Shown one piece after another: positions 3,859 through 39,032 of a stretch of DNA of 64,000 bases. Source of the stretch: Actinomycetes bacterium (GTDB taxonomy: Bacteria; Actinomycetota; Acidimicrobiia; Acidimicrobiales; CADCSY01); contig JAODBP010000160.1 in the NCBI GenBank assembly GCA_025464025.1, forward strand, positions 1 to 64,000. Reading direction: 5' to 3'. The translations under genes and the position numbers were made by a program. Under the pieces are notes generated by a model. The model saw only the letters and a program-made list of their open reading frames with translations. It did no database searches and was not told where the DNA came from. How positions within the stretch are numbered: the stretch's first letter is position 1; each line of letters starts with the position of its first letter.

Positions 3859-4733
3859 GCGTTGACGAGCTGGCGGAGGGCCGCCGGCGAGCACGGGTGG
3901 CGCAGCTTGGTGAGCGCCTTGGCCTCGATCTGGCGGATCCGCTCGCGGGTGAGCGAGAACTCCCTGCCCACGTCCTCGAGCGTGCGGGGGGCGCCGCCGC
4001 TGAGCCCGAAGCGCAGCTCGAGCACCCGCTGCTCGCGCTCGGACAGGCGGGCCAGCACGGTGGCCAGGGCCTCCTGCTCGAGGCGGGTGGCGGCGGCGTC
4101 GAACGGACCCTCGGCCCGGTCGTCGGGCACGAGGTCGGCCAGCTCGCCGTCGCCCTCGGCCAGTGGCGCCGACAGCGACACGACGTCGTGCAGGGCGGCC
4201 CGCAGCTCGACGATGCGATCGGGCTTGAGGCCCGACGCCCGGGCCAGCTCGGCCATGGTCGGCTCCCGACCGTGGAGCCGGCTCAGCTCAGCGGTGACCC
4301 GGTTGACGACGGCGATGGCATCGCCCACGTGCGCCGGCACCCGGATCGTGCGGCCCTTGTCGGCGATGGCCCGGGTCACGGCCTGGCGGATCCACCACGT
4401 GGCGTAGGTCGAGAACTTGAAGCCCCGCTCGGGCTCGAACTTCTCGACCGCCCGCATCAGGCCGAGGTTGCCCTCCTGCACCAGGTCGAGCAGGGGCAGT
4501 CCGGACGACTGGTAGCGCTTGGCGATCGAGACCACCAGGCGGAGGTTGGCGGCGATGAAGCGCTCGCGCGCGGCGTCGGCCCGGGTCACGACCTCGGCGC
4601 TCGCCCCGGGCTCGCGACCGGCCGCGATCAGCCCGCCGAGCTCGGCCTCGTCGGCCGCCGTCAGGAGCGGGTGGGCGCCGACCTCCTGCAGGTAGCGACG
4701 GAGGGCGTCATCGCCCCCGCTCGGCCCGGGCAT
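3855..4733 (-). CDS. RNA polymerase sigma factor, sigma-70 group 1/2 (RpoD/SigB-like)
   Basis: A 292-residue sigma factor with every core region: region 1.2 ([21 protein letters not shown]), region 2 with [39 protein letters not shown] and [17 protein letters not shown], region 3, and region 4 with [25 protein letters not shown]. It lacks the long N-terminal extension of actinobacterial SigA, so it is more likely a group 2 (SigB/HrdB-like accessory) factor. The ATG reading MPGPSGGD is chosen over an upstream in-frame ATG because TACCGT ends 6 nt before it. It converges on murA with overlapping TAG stops. Confidence 0.93.
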
Positions 4734-4739
4734 GTGCCG

Positions 4740-4745
4740 ACGGTA
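4740..4745 (-). promoter_or_regulatory. TACCGT -10 element for the sigma gene
   Basis: On the minus strand TACCGT is followed by 6 nt and then the ATG, matching the leaderless arrangement used by several other genes here. Confidence 0.45.
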
Positions 4746-4821
4746 CCGCCGGGCCGACTCCCAGTGAGGGATTCGCACCGTTTACCCTCCAGCCGGCCGT
4801 CCCGACGACCGAGAAGGAAGT

Positions 4822-6432
4822 GTGTTCGCGCAACCCCTGCTGGCCCTGGTCGCCGCCGTGTCCGGCGCGCTCGGCGCGCCGCATGCCCCCGCGCCCGTGG
4901 TGCCACGGGTGGCCAGCGTCCTGGCCGCCTCGATCGGGGCGCCCCAGGAGTGCCCGAGCTACTGGGTCGTGGCCGACGACGGCGGGGTCTTCACGGCCGG
5001 CGCGGCGCCGTTCGGTGGCTCGGCGGTGGGCAAGCTCGCCGGTGGCCGGGCCGTGGGCGTGGCCGGCACGCCGACCGGGCGGGGCTACTGGCTGGCATCG
5101 TCGACGGGGCGGGTCAACGCCTTCGGCGACGCCCGGTCGTTCGGATCGACCTCGACCACCGGCGTGGTCGCCCTGGCCGCCCGTCCCGACGGCGCCGGGT
5201 ACTGGCTGGCCACGGCCGACGGCCGGGTGCTCGGCTTCGGTGGGGCCAAGGCCGTGGGGTCGCTCGCCGGCCGGCGCCTGGGCCGTCCCGTCGTGGCCAT
5301 GGCGGCCACGCCCTCGGGTGCCGGCTACTGGCTGGCCACGGGCGACGGGGGCGTGTTCGCCTTCGGCGACGCGCGGTTCCTCGGCTCGGCGGCCACGCCG
5401 GGCCGGTCGATCGCGGCGATCGCCGCGTCCCCGACCGGCGCCGGCTACTGGTTGGCCGGCACCGACGGCGGCGTCTTCACGTTCGGCGACGCCCGCTTCT
5501 TCGGCGCCGCCACCGGCACGCTGCCCCGGGCCGTCACCGCCATCGCCGCCTCGCCCACCGGCGCCGGCTACTGGCTGGCGTCGGCCGACGGACGGGTCGT
5601 CGGCTTCGGCGACGCCCGGGCGGCCGCACCGGTGCGCTACCCGACCGACGCCAGCCGGGTCGTCGGCATCGCCCCGCCGGCGGAGTCGCTCCCGTGCCCG
5701 GTGGCCGAGCAGGGCCGCAAGGTCGTGTTCCTCGGCGACTCGGTGATGTTCGACGTGGCCGCCGGCCTGGAGCCGGCGTTGAAGCTGGTGCCCGGCACGG
5801 TCGTCGCCTCCCGGCCGTGGTTCGCCTACGGGCTCGACCTGTCCCGCGACACCTACGACTGGCGCAAGCAGTGGCCGAAGGTCCTGGCCGAGGAGCAGCC
5901 CGACGTCGTGGTCGTGCTCGCCGGCTTCGGTGACATGTGGGCCAAGGCCACCGCGCCGGCCGACCAGCGGCCGGAGACGCCGCAGTGGCGGGCTCGGTAC
6001 GGCAAGGTCGTCGACGACGCCACGCACGTGCTGACCGCCGGCGGCGCCAAGGTCGTCTGGATCGGGCTGCCGTGGGTGGCCGACACGAACATCTACTTCA
6101 CGAACATCCGAGCTCGGGTGGCCTCGGCCAACCAGGTGTACCGGGCCGCGGTGGCCAAGGTGCCGGGTGCCTCGTTCGTCGACGCCGCCGCCCTGCTGGC
6201 CGGGCCGAACGGGGGCTACGCCTTCACCGTGCTCGATGGCACGAAGGTCGTCCAGCTCCGCAAGCCCGACGGCCTCCACCTCTGCCCGCCGGGCGTGGAG
6301 CGCCTGGCTCGCGCCGCGGGCGCCGAGGTCACCAAGGACTTCGGCGACGTGCTGCGGCCCGGCTGGGAGGGCGGGGCGTGGCGGGCCGACGTGCGCTTCC
6401 ACCAGGGCCCGGCGCTCGACTGCAAGCCATAG
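4822..6432 (+). CDS. Secreted repeat protein with C-terminal SGNH-like domain
   Basis: A 536-residue exported protein. It starts at a GTG preceded by the purine-rich ribosome site GAGAAGGAAG and has a short signal peptide (LLALVAAVSGALGAPHAPA). Residues of about 45-275 hold six roughly 40-residue repeats of the form GYWLA-x2-DGGVFxFGDARFxGS, probably a beta-propeller-like surface domain. Residues of about 295-500 look like a GDSL/SGNH hydrolase: VVFLGDSVMFDVAAGL with the nucleophile-type GDS, later VLAGFGDMW, and PDGLHLCPPG with the His-x-x-Asp-like DGLH end. Such repeat proteins are characteristic of Acidimicrobiia. A role in cell-surface polysaccharide or ester modification is inferred. Confidence 0.85.
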   Translation: MFAQPLLALVAAVSGALGAPHAPAPVVPRVASVLAASIGAPQECPSYWVVADDGGVFTAGAAPFGGSAVGKLAGGRAVGVAGTPTGRGYWLASSTGRVNAFGDARSFGSTSTTGVVALAARPDGAGYWLATADGRVLGFGGAKAVGSLAGRRLGRPVVAMAATPSGAGYWLATGDGGVFAFGDARFLGSAATPGRSIAAIAASPTGAGYWLAGTDGGVFTFGDARFFGAATGTLPRAVTAIAASPTGAGYWLASADGRVVGFGDARAAAPVRYPTDASRVVGIAPPAESLPCPVAEQGRKVVFLGDSVMFDVAAGLEPALKLVPGTVVASRPWFAYGLDLSRDTYDWRKQWPKVLAEEQPDVVVVLAGFGDMWAKATAPADQRPETPQWRARYGKVVDDATHVLTAGGAKVVWIGLPWVADTNIYFTNIRARVASANQVYRAAVAKVPGASFVDAAALLAGPNGGYAFTVLDGTKVVQLRKPDGLHLCPPGVERLARAAGAEVTKDFGDVLRPGWEGGAWRADVRFHQGPALDCKP

Positions 6433-6441
6433 GCTGACGGC

Positions 6442-7851
6442 GTGAACGTGCTGGTCGTCACCGTCGACCAGCTGCGGGCCGACGTGCTGTCGATGCTCCC
6501 CACGCCGGGCTTCGACCGCCTGGCCGGCGGGAGCGTCCACCTCCGCCGCCACTACAGCCAGGCGGCACCGTGCGCGCCGGGCCGGGCCTGCCTCTACACC
6601 GGCACGTACCAGCTCAACAACCGCGTGGTCGGCAACGGCACACCGCTCGACGACCGGTTCGACAACCTCGCCCGGGTCGGCCGGCGAGCCGGGTTCGCGC
6701 CGACGCTGTTCGGCTACACCGACGTGGGGATCGACCCCCGCCAGGCGTCGGGTGCCGACGACCCGCGGCTGTCGACCTACGAGGAGGTGCTGCCCGGCTT
6801 CGACGTCGAGCTCGACCTCCGGGAGGACTGCGGGCCGTGGCTGGCCTGGCTCGGGTCGCTCGGCCACGACGTCTCGGGCGGCGCCGTCCAGGCCTTGCGC
6901 ACCGAGCCGGACCGGCCGGCCGAGCACGGCATCACCGCCTTCGCCGTCGACCGCTTCGTCGAGTGGGCCGGACGCCAGGACGCGCCGTGGTTCGCCCACC
7001 TGAGCCTGCTCCGACCCCACCCGCCCTACGCCGCCGCCGGGCACTGGGCGACGGCCTTCGACCCCGACGAGGTCGGCCTGCCGATCCGGCCGGCCGACCT
7101 CCGCCACCCGTTCCACGACGTCGCGCTGTCCGTCTCGGGCGCCCCGGCCGACGAGGCGAAGCTGCGGCGGCTGCGGGCCCAGTACCTCGGCATGGTGGCC
7201 GACGTCGACGACCAGCTCGGGCGGGTCTGGGACGCCATCGACTGGGACGACACGTTCGTGGTGCTCACGTCGGACCACGGCGAGCAGCTCGGCGACCACG
7301 GCCTCGTGGGCAAGCTGGGCTGGTTCGAGGCCAGCTACCACGTCCCCGCCTTCGTGCGGGACCCGCGCCGGCCGGGCGGCCACGGCACGGTGGTCGACGC
7401 CTTCACCGAGAACGTCGACGTGCTCCCGACGCTGTGCGAGGCGCTCGACATGCCGGTGCCGGCCCAGTGCGACGGGCTCCCGCTCACGCCGTTCCTCGAC
7501 TGCGAGGCGCCGCCGTGGTGGCGCACCGCGGCCCACTGGGAGTTCGACTGGCGCCTGCTGCGGCCCGATCGGGTCGCCGCCGGCGCCGGTGCGTGGCCGT
7601 GGGACCGCCGGCTCGACCGCCAGAGCCTCGCCGTGCTGCGCACCGACGCTGCCGCCTTCGTGCAGTTCGCCGACGGCGACTCGCTCGGGTTCGATCTGGC
7701 GGCCGATCCGACGTGGCGCACGCCGCTCGTCGACCCGGTCGCGCTCTACGACCTGGCCCGGGAGATGCTGGCCTGGCGGGCCGAGCACGCCGACCGCACC
7801 CACACCGGCTTCGTGCTCGTCGACGGCGGCGTCGGGCGGTGGCCGTTGTGA
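6442..7851 (+). CDS. Sulfatase-family phosphonate monoester hydrolase-like enzyme
   Basis: A 469-residue alkaline-phosphatase-superfamily enzyme with a formylglycine site: C44 in APCAPGRACLYTG fits CxPxR. Metal ligands are visible as D9-Q10 (VTVDQLRAD) and D278-H279 (TSDHGEQLGDHG). The details match the phosphonate/phosphate monoester hydrolase branch rather than ordinary arylsulfatases: the run LRPHPPY, GKLGWFEASYHVP, the AHWEFDWR block, and a C-terminal LAWRAEHADRTHTGF that parallels the same element in rhizobial PMH. The expected reaction is hydrolysis of phosphonate (or phosphate or sulfate) monoesters. It lacks a signal peptide, so it acts in the cytoplasm. It is followed by two phosphonate-oxygenase-type genes. 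Confidence 0.85.
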   Translation: MNVLVVTVDQLRADVLSMLPTPGFDRLAGGSVHLRRHYSQAAPCAPGRACLYTGTYQLNNRVVGNGTPLDDRFDNLARVGRRAGFAPTLFGYTDVGIDPRQASGADDPRLSTYEEVLPGFDVELDLREDCGPWLAWLGSLGHDVSGGAVQALRTEPDRPAEHGITAFAVDRFVEWAGRQDAPWFAHLSLLRPHPPYAAAGHWATAFDPDEVGLPIRPADLRHPFHDVALSVSGAPADEAKLRRLRAQYLGMVADVDDQLGRVWDAIDWDDTFVVLTSDHGEQLGDHGLVGKLGWFEASYHVPAFVRDPRRPGGHGTVVDAFTENVDVLPTLCEALDMPVPAQCDGLPLTPFLDCEAPPWWRTAAHWEFDWRLLRPDRVAAGAGAWPWDRRLDRQSLAVLRTDAAAFVQFADGDSLGFDLAADPTWRTPLVDPVALYDLAREMLAWRAEHADRTHTGFVLVDGGVGRWPL

Positions 7852-7903
7852 GCGCAGCGAGCCATGAGCACAGGCTTTGTGAGGCGCCCTGGCGCCGAAC
7901 GGG

Positions 7904-7967
7904 TCATTGGTGCTCCCCGACGCGGGATCGGTCGAGGTGTCATCCGATGCTGATGGTGCACCAATGA
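7904..7967. repeat. Perfect 10-bp inverted repeat ending on a start codon
   Basis: TCATTGGTGC (7904-7913) pairs exactly with GCACCAATGA (7958-7967), with 44 nt between. The right arm contains the ATG of the HD-oxygenase gene and an inner GGTGCACC palindrome. It lies in the only sizeable gap of this cassette. It could be an operator pair or an mRNA stem that hides the start codon. Confidence 0.5.
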
Positions 7968-8479
7968 CGCTCGACGAGCTGCTCGCCGTGCTGCGGTCGA
8001 TGGCGGCCGTGCCGTCGGAGGGCGGCACCTACAGCGAGCTCGACCACGGCCTCCAGTGCGGGGCCGAGCTGGCCCGGCTGGCACCCGATGACCTCGAGCT
8101 CCAGGTCGCCGGGCTGGTGCACGACGTGGGCCACGCCTTCGCCGACGACGCCTCGCACGGGCGGGCCGGTGCCGCCGCCGTGCGGCCGCTGCTCGGTGAC
8201 CGCATCGCCGACCTGGTCGAGGGCCACGTGCCGGCGAAGCGCTACCTCGTCACCGTCGACCCCTCGTACGCCGACGGGCTGTCGCCGGGGAGCACCATCA
8301 CGCTGGACGACCAGGGTGGGCCGCTGTCTGCGGACGAGCTGGCCGCGTTCCGGGCCCGGCCCGACTGGGAGGACGCCGTGCGCCTGCGCCGGGCCGACGA
8401 CGCGGCCAAGGTCCCGGGCCTGATCGTGCCCGGGCTGGAGACGTGGGTCGAGGTGCTCCGATCGGTGGTGGCGCGGTGA
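7964..8479 (+). CDS. HD-domain diiron oxygenase of the PhnZ/TmpB type
   Basis: A 171-residue HD-fold protein. All six ligands of a mixed-valent diiron oxygenase are in place: H28, H53-D54 (LVHDVGH), H65 (ASHGRAG), H88 (EGHVPAKRY) and D145 (RRADDAAK). The spacing of the last three (23 and 57 residues) is essentially that of PhnZ, the enzyme that cleaves the C-P bond of 1-hydroxy-2-aminoethylphosphonate. A Tyr and a Glu (TYSELDH) precede the first His, as in such oxygenases, though the loop differs from that of PhnZ. The ATG start fits the conserved N-terminal helix. It overlaps the next gene by GTGA. A plain HD phosphohydrolase is the alternative. Confidence 0.8.
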   Translation: MTLDELLAVLRSMAAVPSEGGTYSELDHGLQCGAELARLAPDDLELQVAGLVHDVGHAFADDASHGRAGAAAVRPLLGDRIADLVEGHVPAKRYLVTVDPSYADGLSPGSTITLDDQGGPLSADELAAFRARPDWEDAVRLRRADDAAKVPGLIVPGLETWVEVLRSVVAR

Positions 8480-9198
8480 ACCTGCTGGCCCCGGCCGAGG
8501 TGGCCGAGCTCCAGGCCTGGCTCGACGACGTGCAGTGGTGGCCGGCCGGGAGCCACGTGTGGGGCCACTACGCCGAGGCGGCCGCCGACGGCCCGGTCGT
8601 GTCCCGGACCGAGAACGTGTCGGCCTGCCACCCCGGCATCGCCGCCCTGGTCGAGGGCCGGCTGCGCGACCTGGCCACCGAGCTGCTGGGGGCGCCGGCC
8701 GTGGCCTTCAAGGACAAGGTCAACTACAAGCATCCCGGCGGCGCCGGGTTCAGCCCCCACCAGGACCTGCCCGCCTACCCGGGCGTGGAGCGGGTGGTGT
8801 CGCTGCTGGTCGCCGTCGACGAGTGCTCCGAGACGTCGGGGTGCCTGTGGCTCGCCCCGCCGGCCGAGGGCGTGCTGCCCACGGACGACCGGGGCGTGCT
8901 GCTCGAGTCGGTCACCCGCGACCTGGTGTGGTCGCCGGCGGTGCTCGGGGCCGGCGACGTGGCCGTCATCGACGGGCTCGCCCCCCACCACAGCGAGGCC
9001 AACCGATCCGACCGGCCGAGGCGGGTGCTCATCGCCTCCTACGCCCCGGTCGCCGAGGGCTACGACCGGGCCACGTACTACGGCGCCCGCCGCGAGGTCA
9101 TGGACGCCGTCGGCGAGCCCCGCATCAGCACCCTCGGCGACTTCGAGGGCACCCACGTGCTCCCCGACGCCGTCGCCGAGGTGCACTGCACCCACTGA
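8476..9198 (+). CDS. PhyH-family Fe(II)/2-oxoglutarate dioxygenase (PhnY/TmpA-like)
   Basis: A 240-residue phytanoyl-CoA-dioxygenase-fold enzyme. The iron ligands are visible as the HxD of SPHQDLPAY and a distal His in GLAPHHSEANRSDRPRR, where the Arg should bind 2-oxoglutarate. KDKVNYKHPGG is the usual strand before the facial triad. In the known PhnY-PhnZ and TmpA-TmpB pairs, a PhyH enzyme hydroxylates the phosphonate alpha carbon and the HD partner then splits the C-P bond. Here the two genes overlap at GTGA, so equal synthesis is likely. The true substrate is unknown. It also has relatives that hydroxylate amino acids or lipids. Confidence 0.82.
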   Translation: MNLLAPAEVAELQAWLDDVQWWPAGSHVWGHYAEAAADGPVVSRTENVSACHPGIAALVEGRLRDLATELLGAPAVAFKDKVNYKHPGGAGFSPHQDLPAYPGVERVVSLLVAVDECSETSGCLWLAPPAEGVLPTDDRGVLLESVTRDLVWSPAVLGAGDVAVIDGLAPHHSEANRSDRPRRVLIASYAPVAEGYDRATYYGARREVMDAVGEPRISTLGDFEGTHVLPDAVAEVHCTH

Positions 9199-9202
9199 TC
9201 CG

Positions 9203-9220
9203 GCGTTTCCGCGGAAACGC
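9203..9220. repeat. 18-bp perfect palindrome GCGTTTCCGCGGAAACGC
   Basis: It starts 5 bp after the stop of the dioxygenase gene and lies upstream of tRNA-Val. It may be a hairpin ending the cassette transcript (no U tract follows) or a protein-binding site. Confidence 0.5.
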
Positions 9221-9270
9221 AGGGGTTGTAGCGTTGACCCTCTTGTCCGGGCAGCTGTGCCGCCCGGCCA

Positions 9271-9344
9271 GGGCGCTTAGCTCAGCTGGCTAGAGCACCT
9301 CCCTTACAAGGAGGGGGTCGGGGGTTCGAGCCCCTCAGCGCCCA
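9271..9344 (+). tRNA. tRNA-Val (anticodon TAC)
   Basis: A complete cloverleaf can be drawn. The acceptor stem pairs GGGCGCT with AGCGCCC, the D-arm is GCTC...GAGC, the anticodon stem is CCTCC/GGAGG with loop CTTACAA, and the T-arm is GGGGG-TTCGAGC-CCCTC. The anticodon TAC reads GUA valine codons. No CCA is encoded. A possible -35 box TTGACC lies at 9234-9239, but the -10 region is poor. Confidence 0.96.
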
Positions 9345-9355
9345 CGATCGTGCGA

Positions 9356-9739
9356 CTACCGCTGGGCGGGTTGGAAGAGCTCGACGGGGTTGCCCGAGGG
9401 ATCGTCGAAGACGATCTGGGAGCCCCCCGGCCCGGTGATGATGTCGCTGCGGAACTGGAGGCCGGCGGCTCGGAGCCGGTCGACCTCGGTGGCGATGTCG
9501 GCGACGTGGAAGTGGAGCCGGTTCCACCCGCCCGGCACCGGCTGGCGGCCGTCGGGCAGGGCGCGCCCGGCCGAGCTGGTCGGGCCGGAGAGCAGGAGTC
9601 GCAAGCAGCCTCGCTGCACGTCGGCGAAGGCCGGCGCCGCGCTCGACAGGACCGTGAAGCCGAGGTGCGCGGTGTAGAAGTCGATGGACGCTTGGACGTC
9701 GTCGACGATGTACCGGACGTTGACGATCTCTTCGGACAT
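9356..9739 (-). CDS. VOC-family (glyoxalase/dioxygenase fold) protein
   Basis: A 127-residue protein with paired beta-alpha-beta-beta-beta modules: the start IVNVRYIVDDVQASIDFYTAHLGF and the later NRLHFHVADIATEVDRLRAAG, GPGGSQIVFDDPSGNPVELFQP are typical VOC signatures. HFHV and the final VELF Glu could be metal ligands. Its ATG overlaps the stop of the ArsR-ArsC fusion gene (TGATG), so it is translated from the same mRNA and is presumably arsenic- or metal-responsive. It lacks the Cys pair of the C-As lyase ArsI, so organoarsenical cleavage is not supported. Confidence 0.82.
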   Translation of the reverse strand: MSEEIVNVRYIVDDVQASIDFYTAHLGFTVLSSAAPAFADVQRGCLRLLLSGPTSSAGRALPDGRQPVPGGWNRLHFHVADIATEVDRLRAAGLQFRSDIITGPGGSQIVFDDPSGNPVELFQPAQR

Positions 9740-13592: not shown

Positions 13593-13708
13593 GTCTCCCC
13601 ATCTCCTAGGTCACCGTGTGCTGGGTCTACGTGGGAAGCCGTCTGGGGATTGCGCCGAACTCCGTGGTGATCCCGACGCACGGCACCACCCGTGACAACC
13701 TGTGGCCC

Positions 13709-14479
13709 GTGGGCCGGCTCGACGAACTGGATCTGTCGCTCTCGCTGAGCAGGAGCGAGGAGGAGGCGCGGCTGGCCGTGGCCCACCGGCGCCTGCTGCA
13801 CCTGCGCCTGGTCCTCGGGGGTCACGTGGGTCCGGGGAAGCTGGGCCCGCCGGTGTGCATCGTGTTCGAGGGGTGGGACGCGTCGGGCAAGGGCGGGTGC
13901 ATCAAGCGCCTGGTCGAGCCGATCGACCCTCGCCACGTGCGGGTGACCCAGACGGCGGCACCCGACCACGACGAGCTGCGCCACCACTTCCTCTGGCGGT
14001 TCTGGCCGAAGCTGCCGGGCTGGGGCGGCATGACGATCTTCGACCGCTCCTGGTACGGCCGGGTCATGGTCGAGCGGGTCGAGGGCTTCGCCACCGACGA
14101 GCAGTGGACCCGCGCCTACGACGAGATCGTCGACTACGAGCGGACCCTGTGCGCCGAGGGGATGCTGCTGGCCAAGTTCTGGCTGCACATCAGCGACGAG
14201 GAGCAGGAGCGTCGCTTCGAGCGCCGGGCCCAGGATCCCCTCAAGCAGTGGAAGCTCACCGACGAGGACTGGCGCAACCGGGCCAAGCGGGCCCAGTACG
14301 AGGCGGCCATCGAGGACATGCTCGAGCGCACCGACCACGCCGCCGCGCCGTGGATCGCGGTGCCGGCCGAGTCGAAGCGCTACGCCCGGGTGCACGTCGT
14401 GGAAGAGGTCATCGCCATGATCGAGCGGGGCATGGAGAAGTGGGGCATCGACGTCCCGCCGCCCGAGTCCGAGTCGTAG
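13709..14479 (+). CDS. ppk2: Polyphosphate kinase 2 family protein
   Basis: A 256-residue PPK2-family kinase, which phosphorylates nucleoside mono- or diphosphates with polyphosphate. It has the Walker A sequence FEGWDASGKGGCIKRL, the Walker B region FDRSWYGRVMVERVEG, and the lid and C-terminal blocks ISDEEQERRFERRAQDPLKQWKL and HVVEEVIAMIERGM. Single-domain length fits class I or III enzymes. The GTG reading VGRLDELDL is chosen because the preceding frame lacks family similarity, but the start is not certain. It is monocistronic. Confidence 0.88.
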   Translation: MGRLDELDLSLSLSRSEEEARLAVAHRRLLHLRLVLGGHVGPGKLGPPVCIVFEGWDASGKGGCIKRLVEPIDPRHVRVTQTAAPDHDELRHHFLWRFWPKLPGWGGMTIFDRSWYGRVMVERVEGFATDEQWTRAYDEIVDYERTLCAEGMLLAKFWLHISDEEQERRFERRAQDPLKQWKLTDEDWRNRAKRAQYEAAIEDMLERTDHAAAPWIAVPAESKRYARVHVVEEVIAMIERGMEKWGIDVPPPESES

Positions 14480-36714: not shown

Positions 36715-36776
36715 CGAACGAGCCTATGGGGTCGCCCCCGTCGTTCGATAACCCACCTGAGTTAGAGTTCGCTCCG

Positions 36777-39032
36777 ATGACGCAGCGCGTGACGTCCCGG
36801 GTGGCCAGCTCCGAACCGGCCTTCGTCGGCTACCCCCGCCCGCCGGCCGGGGCGCCCAACGTCGTGATGGTCGTGCTCGACGACGTCGGGTTCGCCCAGC
36901 TCGGCTGCTTCGGCGGCGGGATCGACACGCCGAACATCGACCGGCTCGCCGCCGGCGGCCTGCGCTACAACCGCTTCCACGTCACGTCGGTGTGCTCGTC
37001 GACGCGCGCCTGCCTCCTCACCGGCCGCAACCACCACGCCGTCGGCATGGGGCTCACGCAGGAGTCGGTGCTCGGCTTCCCGGGCTACACCGGTCGCATC
37101 CCGAGGTCGGCGGCCACGCTCGCCCGCACGCTGCGGGACAACGGCTACAACACCATGGCCGTCGGCAAGTGGCACCTCACGGCCAAGGGCGAGTACTCCG
37201 CCGCCGGCCCCTTCGAGCGCTGGCCCCTCGGGCTCGGCTTCGAGCGGTACTACGGGTTCCTCGGCGCCGAGACCAGCCAGTGGGCGCCCGAGCTCGTGCG
37301 CGACAACTCCCACGTCGACCCGCCCCGCGCGCCGGACGAGGGCTACCACCTGACCGAGGACCTGGTCGACGAGGCCCTCCGGGTGCTGCAGGACCAGCGC
37401 CAGGCCACGGCCGGGGCCAAGCCGTTCTTCCTCTACTTCGCACCGGGCGCCGCCCACGCGCCGCACCAGGTGACCGAGGAGTGGATCGCGCCGTACCGCG
37501 GCCGCTTCGACGACGGCTGGGAGGCGTGGCGCGACCGCGCCTACGCCCGTCAGATCGCCGAGGGCATCATCCCGCCCGGCACCACGCTCACGACCCGTCC
37601 CTCGTGGGTGCCGGAGTGGACCTCGCTGTCCGACGACGAGCGCCGGCTCTACGCCCGCTACATGGAGGTGTTCGCCGGCTTCGTCACCCACACCGACCAC
37701 CACCTCGGCCGGCTGTTCGACGCCCTCGACGACGACACGCTCGTGCTGCTGCTGTCCGACAACGGGGCCAGCGCCGAGGGCGGCGTCACCGGGACGATCA
37801 ACGAGGCGGCGGCGTGGCTCGGCGCGGGGGAGACGGTGGAGGAGGCGCTCGAGCAGATCGACGAGATCGGCGGGCACCGCGCCTTCAACCACTACCCGTT
37901 CGGGTGGGCGTGGGCCGGGAACGCGCCGCTGCGCCTGTGGAAGCGCTACGCCTGGCTCGGTGGGGTCCGCACCCCGCTCGTCGTCCGGTGGGGCGATCGG
38001 CTGGCCGGGCGGGGGAGCGTGCGGGACCAGTTCTGCCACGCCGTCGACGTGTACGCGACGGTGCTCGATGCCGCCGGGATCGACCAGCCCGACGTGGTCG
38101 ACGGCGTGCCCCAGCAGCCGGTCGACGGCCGGTCGATGCTGCCCACGTTCGGCGATGCCGGGGCGGCGGCCCCCCGGAAGCTCCAGTACTTCGAGATGAT
38201 GGGCTCCCGGGGCATCTACCTCGACGGGTGGAAGGCCGTGACCGACCACGTGGCCAACCAGTTCGACGAGCGGTCGCACCTCGAGGGCAGCTTCGACTTC
38301 GCCACCGACCGCTGGTCGCTCTTCGACCTCTCGAACGACTTCTCCGAGGCCCACGACCTGGCCGACCAGGAGCCCGAGCGCCTCCGGCAGATGGAGGAGA
38401 CGTGGTGGGGCGAGGCCGGGCGCAACCAGGTGCTCCCGCTCTACGAGTTCCCGGCGTCGCTGGCCCACATGCACCCGGCTGAGCTGCCCCCGCCGAGCCG
38501 GGCGACCTACGCGCCGGGAGGGGGCCCGATCATCGAGAGCCAGCTGCCGGTGACGATGGGCGGCTTCGAGCTCACCGCCCACGTCGAGGTCGTCGACGGC
38601 ACCGAAGGCATCGTCACCGCCCTCGGCGACCGGCACGGGGGCTGGGCCCTCTACCTGCTCGCCGGCCGCCCGACGGCGACGTTCGCCCTCCTCGGCTCGA
38701 CCGTGCGGATCGCCTCCGACGTGGCGGTGCCGTCCGGCGCCCACACCGTCGGCCTCCGCTACGAGGCCGGCCGCGACCCGAAGGTGCGCCTCGCCATCGA
38801 CGGCGCCGACGTGGCCGAGGCCGCCTTGCCCGGTCTGGTCTTCTTCCCCAACCTCTCGACGGCGGGCGCCGGGATGCTGGTCGGCCGCGACCGGGGCCTC
38901 CCGGTGAGCGACGACTACCGCCCGCCGTTCGCCTTCACCGGCACGCTGCACCGCGTCGAGCTGGCCAGCGGCGCCCCGAAGGCCCGGCCCGACGACGCCA
39001 CGGCGACGAAGGTGGCGCTGGCCGCCGACTGA
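36777..39032 (+). CDS. Arylsulfatase (sulfatase family)
   Basis: A 751-residue sulfatase similar in size and layout to mycobacterial AtsA. The formylglycine site is VTSVCSSTRACLLTGRNHH (C-x-S-x-R). Metal ligands are the Asp pair in VVLDDVGFAQLG and the later LLSDNGASAEGG; VGKWHL is the conserved Lys-x-His. A C-terminal region of about 170 residues (from TMGGFELTAHVEV) looks like a beta-sandwich. It hydrolyses sulfate esters. No signal peptide is seen. TAGAGT ends 8 nt before the ATG, and starting there removes 17 extra upstream codons. Confidence 0.9.
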   Translation: MTQRVTSRVASSEPAFVGYPRPPAGAPNVVMVVLDDVGFAQLGCFGGGIDTPNIDRLAAGGLRYNRFHVTSVCSSTRACLLTGRNHHAVGMGLTQESVLGFPGYTGRIPRSAATLARTLRDNGYNTMAVGKWHLTAKGEYSAAGPFERWPLGLGFERYYGFLGAETSQWAPELVRDNSHVDPPRAPDEGYHLTEDLVDEALRVLQDQRQATAGAKPFFLYFAPGAAHAPHQVTEEWIAPYRGRFDDGWEAWRDRAYARQIAEGIIPPGTTLTTRPSWVPEWTSLSDDERRLYARYMEVFAGFVTHTDHHLGRLFDALDDDTLVLLLSDNGASAEGGVTGTINEAAAWLGAGETVEEALEQIDEIGGHRAFNHYPFGWAWAGNAPLRLWKRYAWLGGVRTPLVVRWGDRLAGRGSVRDQFCHAVDVYATVLDAAGIDQPDVVDGVPQQPVDGRSMLPTFGDAGAAAPRKLQYFEMMGSRGIYLDGWKAVTDHVANQFDERSHLEGSFDFATDRWSLFDLSNDFSEAHDLADQEPERLRQMEETWWGEAGRNQVLPLYEFPASLAHMHPAELPPPSRATYAPGGGPIIESQLPVTMGGFELTAHVEVVDGTEGIVTALGDRHGGWALYLLAGRPTATFALLGSTVRIASDVAVPSGAHTVGLRYEAGRDPKVRLAIDGADVAEAALPGLVFFPNLSTAGAGMLVGRDRGLPVSDDYRPPFAFTGTLHRVELASGAPKARPDDATATKVALAAD

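What the first reader, a model, noticed from the sequence alone, without database searches (positions are those of the whole stretch)
6442..9198. Three-gene candidate pathway for oxidative breakdown of phosphonate esters
A formylglycine enzyme resembling phosphonate monoester hydrolase is followed by an HD protein with all six diiron-oxygenase ligands in PhnZ-like spacing (H28, H53-D54, H65, H88, D145) and a PhyH dioxygenase, the last two overlapping by GTGA. Known PhnY-PhnZ and TmpA-TmpB pairs hydroxylate and then cleave the C-P bond. Adding an esterase in front would let the cell start from phosphonate monoesters such as phosphonolipid or polysaccharide esters and end with phosphate. I do not know of a described pathway that joins these three enzymes in one cassette. 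The motifs are seen; the joint pathway is inferred.
Basis: partly seen in the sequence, partly recalled or inferred. Interest (0 to 1): 0.85.

Follow-up and report, generated by a model that had tools for sequence, protein, structure and literature searches.

The report
Esterase-plus-oxidase cassette for phosphonate esters
Three neighbouring genes in a likely actinobacterium known only from metagenome DNA look like a small assembly line that first cuts an ester off a carbon-phosphorus compound and then oxidises the carbon-phosphorus bond to free phosphate, and the same trio recurs in different arrangements in related bacteria, but no enzyme of it has been assayed.

The parts
6442..7851 (+). 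PMH-like formylglycine-type esterase (AP superfamily, sulfatase fold), 469 aa; CxPxR at C44-P46-R48, Y92 and D94 (Asp-type PMH signature), D9-Q10, D278-H279, K291, N65
   Evidence: meaning of Y92/D94 from PMC5488252 (passages)
7964..8479 (+). PhnZ-like HD-domain diiron oxygenase, 171 aa, clade II (no Tyr-x-x-Glu lid); ligands H28, H53, D54, H65, H88, D145
8476..9198 (+). PhyH-family Fe(II)/2-oxoglutarate dioxygenase (PhnY-like), 240 aa; H95-x-D97, H171, R183 invariant in 24 of 24 aligned
   Evidence: roles of the residues recalled
8476..8479 (+). GTGA overlap of HD stop and PhyH start, suggests translational coupling
4822..6432 (+). SGNH hydrolase/DUF459 gene, ends 9 bases upstream of the esterase; possibly co-transcribed here, but not seen upstream of the esterase in L092-L094, so not counted as a member

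Best explanation
A three-step phosphorus-acquisition cassette. Step 1 (inferred): the PMH-like enzyme, probably cytoplasmic, after its Cys44 is turned into formylglycine, hydrolyses the P-O-C ester of a small imported phosphonate monoester and frees the phosphonate. Step 2 (inferred): the PhyH dioxygenase hydroxylates the carbon next to phosphorus, using Fe(II), O2 and 2-oxoglutarate. Step 3 (inferred): the HD diiron oxygenase cleaves the C-P bond of the 1-hydroxyphosphonate with O2, giving phosphate and a carboxylate. What is shown is the gene row, the family assignments with intact catalytic residues, and the repeated linkage of this PMH subgroup with two deeply separated HD lineages. The order of steps rests on established chemistry (recalled): PhnZ binds a free phosphonate at its iron, and PMHs cut esters, not C-P bonds.
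Against: No activity is known to me for any clade II HD or for this PMH subgroup. All three proteins miss the curated cut-offs of the nearest NCBIfam models (134.8 of 214.6, 162.4 of 500, 339.6 of 900 bits). The HD lacks the lid Tyr and Glu of PhnZ/TmpB. In 27 of the 38 genomes with the PMH subgroup the esterase is not within 1 kb of an HD gene, and 11 of 38 have neither HD nor PhyH at the thresholds used. None of 17 plasmid loci opened has a PMH hit together with an HD hit. No phosphonate transporter showed among 36 window genes scanned with Pfam, and a PhnD-type binding protein was over cut-off in only 3 of 11 linked genomes. A known formylglycine-making enzyme was found in 6 of 11 (FGE in 3; radical-SAM maturase in 3, one of them a partial gene below cut-off). 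PMHs are also phosphodiesterases, so the esterase could serve another substrate. Two flank genes (P450, TetR) are shared by the two closest loci G006 and G245, so these two are not independent cases.
Confidence: 0.6

Rival explanations
1. Parallel phosphorus scavenging: the esterase is a general phosphodiesterase and the HD/PhyH pair degrades a free phosphonate; the genes sit together because both answer phosphate hunger, not because one feeds the other.
For: PMHs hydrolyse phosphate diesters as well as phosphonate monoesters (passages of PMC5649143 and PMC5488252). The Rhizobium pehA gene on pRL9 lies among ABC transporter genes, with no HD or PhyH gene. HD/PhyH pairs without a near PMH are common: 40 genomes have HD and PhyH within 5 kb, 10 of them with PMH within 1 kb.
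Against: No alkaline phosphatase, Pst or Ugp-type gene showed among the flank genes of six linked loci that were scanned (G101, G245, G006, G062, G294, G147). Co-occurrence of the PMH subgroup with the HD+PhyH pair is strong (24 of 38; Fisher p 4e-12, uncorrected for kinship) and the linked state changes at least six times on the tree.
Confidence: 0.22
2. The HD/PhyH pair of clade II acts on a non-phosphonate substrate (for instance another phosphorus, sulfur or polyol compound), and the esterase frees that substrate from a phosphate or sulfate ester.
For: Clade II mostly lacks the PhnZ/TmpB lid and is separated by a long branch with support 100; weak Pfam MIOX match E 0.15.
Against: The residues that hold the phosphonate in PhnZ (roles recalled) are kept in clade II; the same esterase subgroup also sits beside clade I pairs, the clade of PhnZ and TmpB; Z to MIOX is less than half that to PhnZ.
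Confidence: 0.12
3. Chance or ancestral neighbourhood with no functional tie.
For: 11 of 38 genomes with the PMH subgroup lack both partners; the sample is one class, so kinship inflates counts; some flank genes are shared among related loci.
Against: Several gene orders and strands with the same three partners, 0 of 40 genomes in the control group, and mostly differing flanks. My rough arithmetic (not a call) for chance adjacency within 1 kb in 55 genomes of about 3 Mb is about 0.1 genome; 11 were seen.
Confidence: 0.06

Closest known systems
PhnY*/PhnZ (2-aminoethylphosphonate) and Gimesia maris PhnY/PhnZ1 (methylphosphonate) oxidative pathways
   Same: 2OG dioxygenase + HD diiron oxygenase side by side; ligands and phosphonate-binding positions kept; nearest NCBIfam model of the PhyH is the G. 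maris methylphosphonate hydroxylase
   Different: extra PMH-like esterase in the cassette; gene order HD then PhyH; HD in a separate deep clade without the Tyr-x-x-Glu lid; scores below the family cut-offs. The G. maris HD sequence itself was not placed on the tree
TmpA/TmpB (trimethylaminoethylphosphonate)
   Different: in the two TmpB-like plasmid loci with annotation the partner is a TauD/TfdA dioxygenase, not PhyH; lid present in that clade; no PMH. The Labrenzia TmpAB-like pair is followed by a different AP-superfamily gene
Phosphonate monoester hydrolases (RlPMH, BcPMH/PehA, ArPMH 4uph, SpPMH)
   Same: fGly motif, PMH-type active-site residues, fold; 37-38% identity to the Rhizobium pRL9, Ruegeria and Pseudoroseomonas copies
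   Different: separate subgroup, linked to oxidative C-P cleavage genes; Asp type rather than the Thr type of RlPMH; 69-78 residues shorter than the PDB chains of 538-547
PMH proposed upstream of C-P lyase in Sulfitobacter (Sosa 2017, PMC5649143, passages read)
   Same: idea that a PMH frees phosphonates from esters before C-P cleavage
   Different: there C-P lyase, giving methane and ethylene, and the genes are not described as one cassette in the passages read; here the oxidative route, and PhnJ was not found in the 11 linked genomes

Membership tests
PhnZ/TmpB phosphonate HD oxygenases | six-residue diiron motif H...HD...H...H...D | tested here: met
   motif from PMC8177086
PhnZ/TmpB phosphonate HD oxygenases | YxxE substrate lid before the first His | tested here: not met
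   window S18/G21 at the positions of PhnZ Y24/E27; Tyr and Glu in 35 of 35 scored clade I rows, 3 of 59 clade II rows
PhnZ/TmpB phosphonate HD oxygenases | fold | tested here: met
PhnZ/TmpB phosphonate HD oxygenases | NCBIfam TIGR03276 curated score (214.6 bits) | tested here: not met
   134.8 bits; three clade I relatives beside PMH 194.6, 204.8 and 216.1
PhnZ/TmpB phosphonate HD oxygenases | oxidative C-P cleavage activity, mixed-valent diiron | not testable with these tools
   needs purified enzyme
PhnY-type PhyH dioxygenases | HxD...H facial triad and 2OG-binding Arg | tested here: met
   H95, D97, H171, R183 in 24 of 24; meaning of the residues recalled
PhnY-type PhyH dioxygenases | NCBIfam NF052437 curated score (500 bits) | tested here: not met
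   162.4 bits
Phosphonate monoester hydrolases | CxPxR formylglycine motif | tested here: met
   C44, P46, R48 in 24 of 24 and 59 of 59 rows; conversion to formylglycine itself not tested
Phosphonate monoester hydrolases | Tyr and Thr/Asp at the two positions that are Lys and His in arylsulfatases | tested here: met
   Y92 and D94; rule from PMC5488252 (passages)
Phosphonate monoester hydrolases | NCBIfam PehA curated score (900 bits) | tested here: not met
   339.6 bits
Phosphonate monoester hydrolases | hydrolysis of phosphonate monoesters | not testable with these tools
   needs assay
TmpAB pathway | NCBIfam TmpB equivalog score (300 bits) | tested here: not met
   93.9 bits; Labrenzia HD for comparison 351.8

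The most novel reading that the evidence does not exclude
Clade II HD proteins are a second, mostly lid-less branch of phosphonate-cleaving diiron oxygenases with their own substrate, and an esterase-first oxidative route (phosphonate ester to phosphonate to 1-hydroxyphosphonate to phosphate) has been assembled several times in Acidimicrobiia, giving a methane-free way to mine phosphonate esters.
Probability: 0.4. Interest if true: 0.75.

Novelty: new variant of a known kind. Interest (0 to 1): 0.62.

Why it matters
In marine dissolved polysaccharides phosphonates occur as esters (PMC5649143, passages), and that paper could only postulate which enzyme opens the ester before C-P cleavage. As far as I know PMHs have no agreed natural role. 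A recurring trio ties a PMH subgroup to oxidative C-P cleavage and makes both questions testable with three small proteins. If the free product is methylphosphonate, this route would yield formate instead of methane. The lid-less HD clade would extend the mixed-valent diiron oxygenases.

Tried and rejected
Considered and rejected: plain phosphohydrolase for the HD gene; arylsulfatase for the esterase; SGNH gene 4822-6432 as a fourth member (upstream neighbours in L092-L094 are other families). A tie to formate-using genes was considered and not kept: one locus without PMH (L106) has a molybdopterin oxidoreductase beside the pair on the other strand. The sequence of Gimesia PhnZ1 was not obtained, so its clade is not placed. 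Survey of the phylum: 16 of 396 sampled genomes have an esterase match at E 1e-150 or better, all 16 already in the class sample (15 of the window subgroup, one not); HD and PhyH were not searched there, so nothing is claimed for other classes. Promoter and terminator scan of 4600-9500 found nothing. My first gene caller gave shadow genes on high-GC DNA and was replaced; the second failed on four loci of about 50% GC (L099, L101, L104 no genes; L103 12% coding) and missed single trio genes in others, so the trio there rests on tblastn, and the flanks of L099 and L101 were not read. Of the 11 linked loci, flank genes were sent to Pfam for nine (G101, G245, G006, G062, G294, G147; G089, G029, G221 in part). 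Literature: searches listed no paper whose title or abstract start describes the trio; passages of PMC10574752, PMC8177086, PMC5649143, PMC4744853, PMC10590968, PMC9381506, PMC5488252, PMC12421950 and PMC6581173 were read, no whole paper; only open-licence PMC text is searchable, and the PhnZ structure paper was not held.
Full report
What is there. Three genes on the + strand: a sulfatase-fold hydrolase (6442-7851, 469 aa), an HD protein (ATG 7964-8479, 171 aa) and a PhyH dioxygenase (GTG 8476-9198, 240 aa); HD stop and PhyH start overlap as GTGA. No whole genome is held for the window; its esterase and PhyH are listed on one contig of 83,353 bases, and where relatives carry an organism name it is mostly Acidimicrobiia, Acidimicrobiales, Actinomycetes or Actinomycetota MAGs, with single exceptions such as a Deltaproteobacteria and a Phenylobacterium MAG for the esterase.

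PhyH protein. Pfam PhyH E 1.2e-21; the only NCBIfam match is methylphosphonate hydroxylase, 162.4 bits of 500. H95-x-D97...H171 and R183 are invariant in 24 of 24. PhyH proteins beside PMH fall in two score groups against that model: 156.8-163.1 bits (window, G006, G245) and 247.5-271.3 bits (G101, G147, G089, G097, G296) (the others were not scored).

Esterase. Best PDB sequence hits are 4uph, 2vqr, 2w8s and 4upk, PMHs by the structure titles; the top six Foldseek rows are PMHs, although the model is only moderate (pLDDT 72.8, poor at residues 39-70 which hold the CxPxR motif). PMC5488252 (passages) says PMHs and arylsulfatases differ at two positions: Tyr and Thr or Asp in PMHs, Lys and His in arylsulfatases. 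The window has Y92 and D94, the common Asp type; both are invariant in 24 of 24 homologues, and Y92 in 59 of 59, D94 in 57 of 59 rows of a wider set. The Rhizobium pRL9 copy (L112) was taken as RlPMH from its plasmid and name, not checked letter by letter. The window protein begins at the first strand (metal ligand D9), with no room for a signal peptide (read from the sequence; no predictor was run).

Linkage. In 296 genomes drawn from the class of G006 (a genome whose record is titled Acidimicrobiales) PhyH was found in 52 (E 1e-30), HD in 80 (E 1e-20), esterase in 78 (E 1e-60) (the tool scores only the best few candidates per genome, so these are lower bounds). All three occur in 42. HD lies within 5 kb of PhyH in 40. 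The esterase lies within 1 kb of HD in 11: G101, G245, G006, G062, G294, G089, G147, G097, G029, G296, G221; in 10 of these it is also within 1 kb of PhyH (not G062); in two more (G155, G096) it is 8.6-9.2 kb from HD. Arrangements (read from the coordinates): esterase-HD-PhyH on one strand (window, G006, G245); esterase-HD with PhyH on the other strand (G101); esterase-HD with PhyH elsewhere (G062); esterase divergent from PhyH-HD (G294, G089, G147, G029, G221); esterase-PhyH-HD on one strand (G097, G296). The class holds two esterase groups by score and tree: the window-type subgroup in 38 genomes, where all 11 linked cases lie, and others alone in 40 genomes, with 0 linked (the split was set by me from bit scores, with the cut fragments of G221 and G167 put in the subgroup; G062 holds both kinds). 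All 38 subgroup genomes and 15 of the 41 genomes with the other kind are rows of the tree. No HD or PhyH gene was found in the 40 further esterase neighbourhoods fetched (25 of the subgroup, 15 of the other kind; flanks about 2.5 kb or less). On the 59-row tree, less five plasmid references, the linked state needs at least six changes.

Co-occurrence. 24 of the 38 subgroup genomes have both HD and PhyH; Fisher p 4e-12. The same test for the other 40 genomes gives 18, p 7e-6, so part of the signal is shared habitat or kinship; none of these p-values is corrected for kinship. Eleven of the 38 have neither partner.

Two HD clades. Linked rows in the HD tree: clade II holds window, G006, G245, G101, G062; clade I holds G221, G147, G029, G294, G089, G097, G296. 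So one esterase subgroup has joined two lineages of HD oxygenase, which is the strongest argument for a functional link.

Flanks. Genes next to the trio that were sent to Pfam are mostly unlike each other: zinc dehydrogenase and cyclase (G101), PrsW, DUF1275 and another sulfatase (G245), fatty-acid hydroxylase and GGDEF (G006), amino-acid kinase and aldehyde dehydrogenase (G062), DapB-like and short-chain dehydrogenase (G294), DapB-like (G147, G221), thiolase and GGDEF/EAL (G089). Exceptions: G006 and G245, close on the tree, share a P450 and a TetR gene upstream of the esterase; a P450-type family turns up in four of the 20 loci compared; and several families are shared among G294, G147, G029 and G221, as kinship would give. 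PhnJ of C-P lyase: 0 of 11 linked genomes (E. coli control positive). PhnD-like binding protein over cut-off: 3 of 11. Formylglycine makers: FGE in G101, G245, G062, radical-SAM maturase over cut-off in G221 and G029 and a partial one below cut-off in G294; none over cut-off in the other five. These are draft genomes in many contigs, so absences are weak.

Outside the class. Plasmid records: 27 hold an HD relative, 38 an esterase relative; 12 and 5 of them respectively were opened. By HMM search none of the 12 HD loci has a PMH hit (E 1e-40) within the 4-5 kb read on each side, two have PhyH (Dietzia, Rhodococcus), and none of the 5 esterase loci has HD or PhyH. By annotation, HD genes sit in C-P lyase operons (Variovorax, Nostoc) or with a TauD/TfdA dioxygenase (Labrenzia, Aliiroseovarius). 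The Labrenzia HD passes the TmpB cut-off (351.8 bits) and is followed by a gene of the type I phosphodiesterase family: a possible second case of an AP-superfamily esterase joined to an oxidative pair. So the trio as such was seen only in the class surveyed.

Literature. The review PMC10574752 (passages) lists four oxidative systems: PhnY/PhnZ, G. maris PhnY/PhnZ, TmpA/TmpB and PhoF; none with an esterase in the passages read. PMC5649143 (passages) proposes that a PMH might free phosphonates from polysaccharide esters ahead of C-P lyase. PMC6581173 (passages) suggests Prochlorococcus PhnYZ may use such esters, without naming an esterase in the passages shown. PMC9381506 (passages) mentions arylsulfatase A genes near methylphosphonate synthesis genes. 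Nine searches listed no paper that describes the trio.

Verdict. It works like PhnY-PhnZ with a PMH in front, but the HD protein should not be filed as PhnZ or TmpB, because their lid and their family cut-offs are not met.

Noticed in passing
L118 4890-6325 (Labrenzia plasmid): TmpB-type HD gene is followed, overlapping by 4 bases, by a 281-aa type I phosphodiesterase-family gene; possible independent joining of an AP-superfamily esterase to the TmpAB route.
   Followed up: partly
L120 2578-5492 (Novosphingobium plasmid): HD gene lies divergent from a gene annotated as phosphocholine-specific phospholipase C, another esterase beside a PhnZ-like gene.
   Followed up: no
L107 6574-8595 (G005): A clade II HD gene that does have the lid Tyr/Glu lies 6 bases after an aldehyde dehydrogenase gene, with PhyH about 1.1 kb further on.
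   Followed up: no
L109 7644-8375, L110 7400-8107: Clade II HD genes of two genomes without a PhyH hit lie next to an OmpR/PhoB-type response regulator gene on the opposite strand; may point to phosphate control.
   Followed up: no
L119 and L125: HD oxygenase genes sit inside or beside C-P lyase operons (Variovorax, Nostoc) with no PhyH hit in the stretch read.
   Followed up: partly
window 36726-39032: A second sulfatase-fold gene (768 aa) in the window.
   Followed up: no
window 13616-14479: Polyphosphate kinase 2 gene about 4.4 kb downstream of the cassette.
   Followed up: no
G006, G089, G147, G097, G296: Genomes with CxPxR esterases but no formylglycine-generating enzyme found and no sulfatase maturase over cut-off; draft gaps or an unknown maturation route.
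   Followed up: partly
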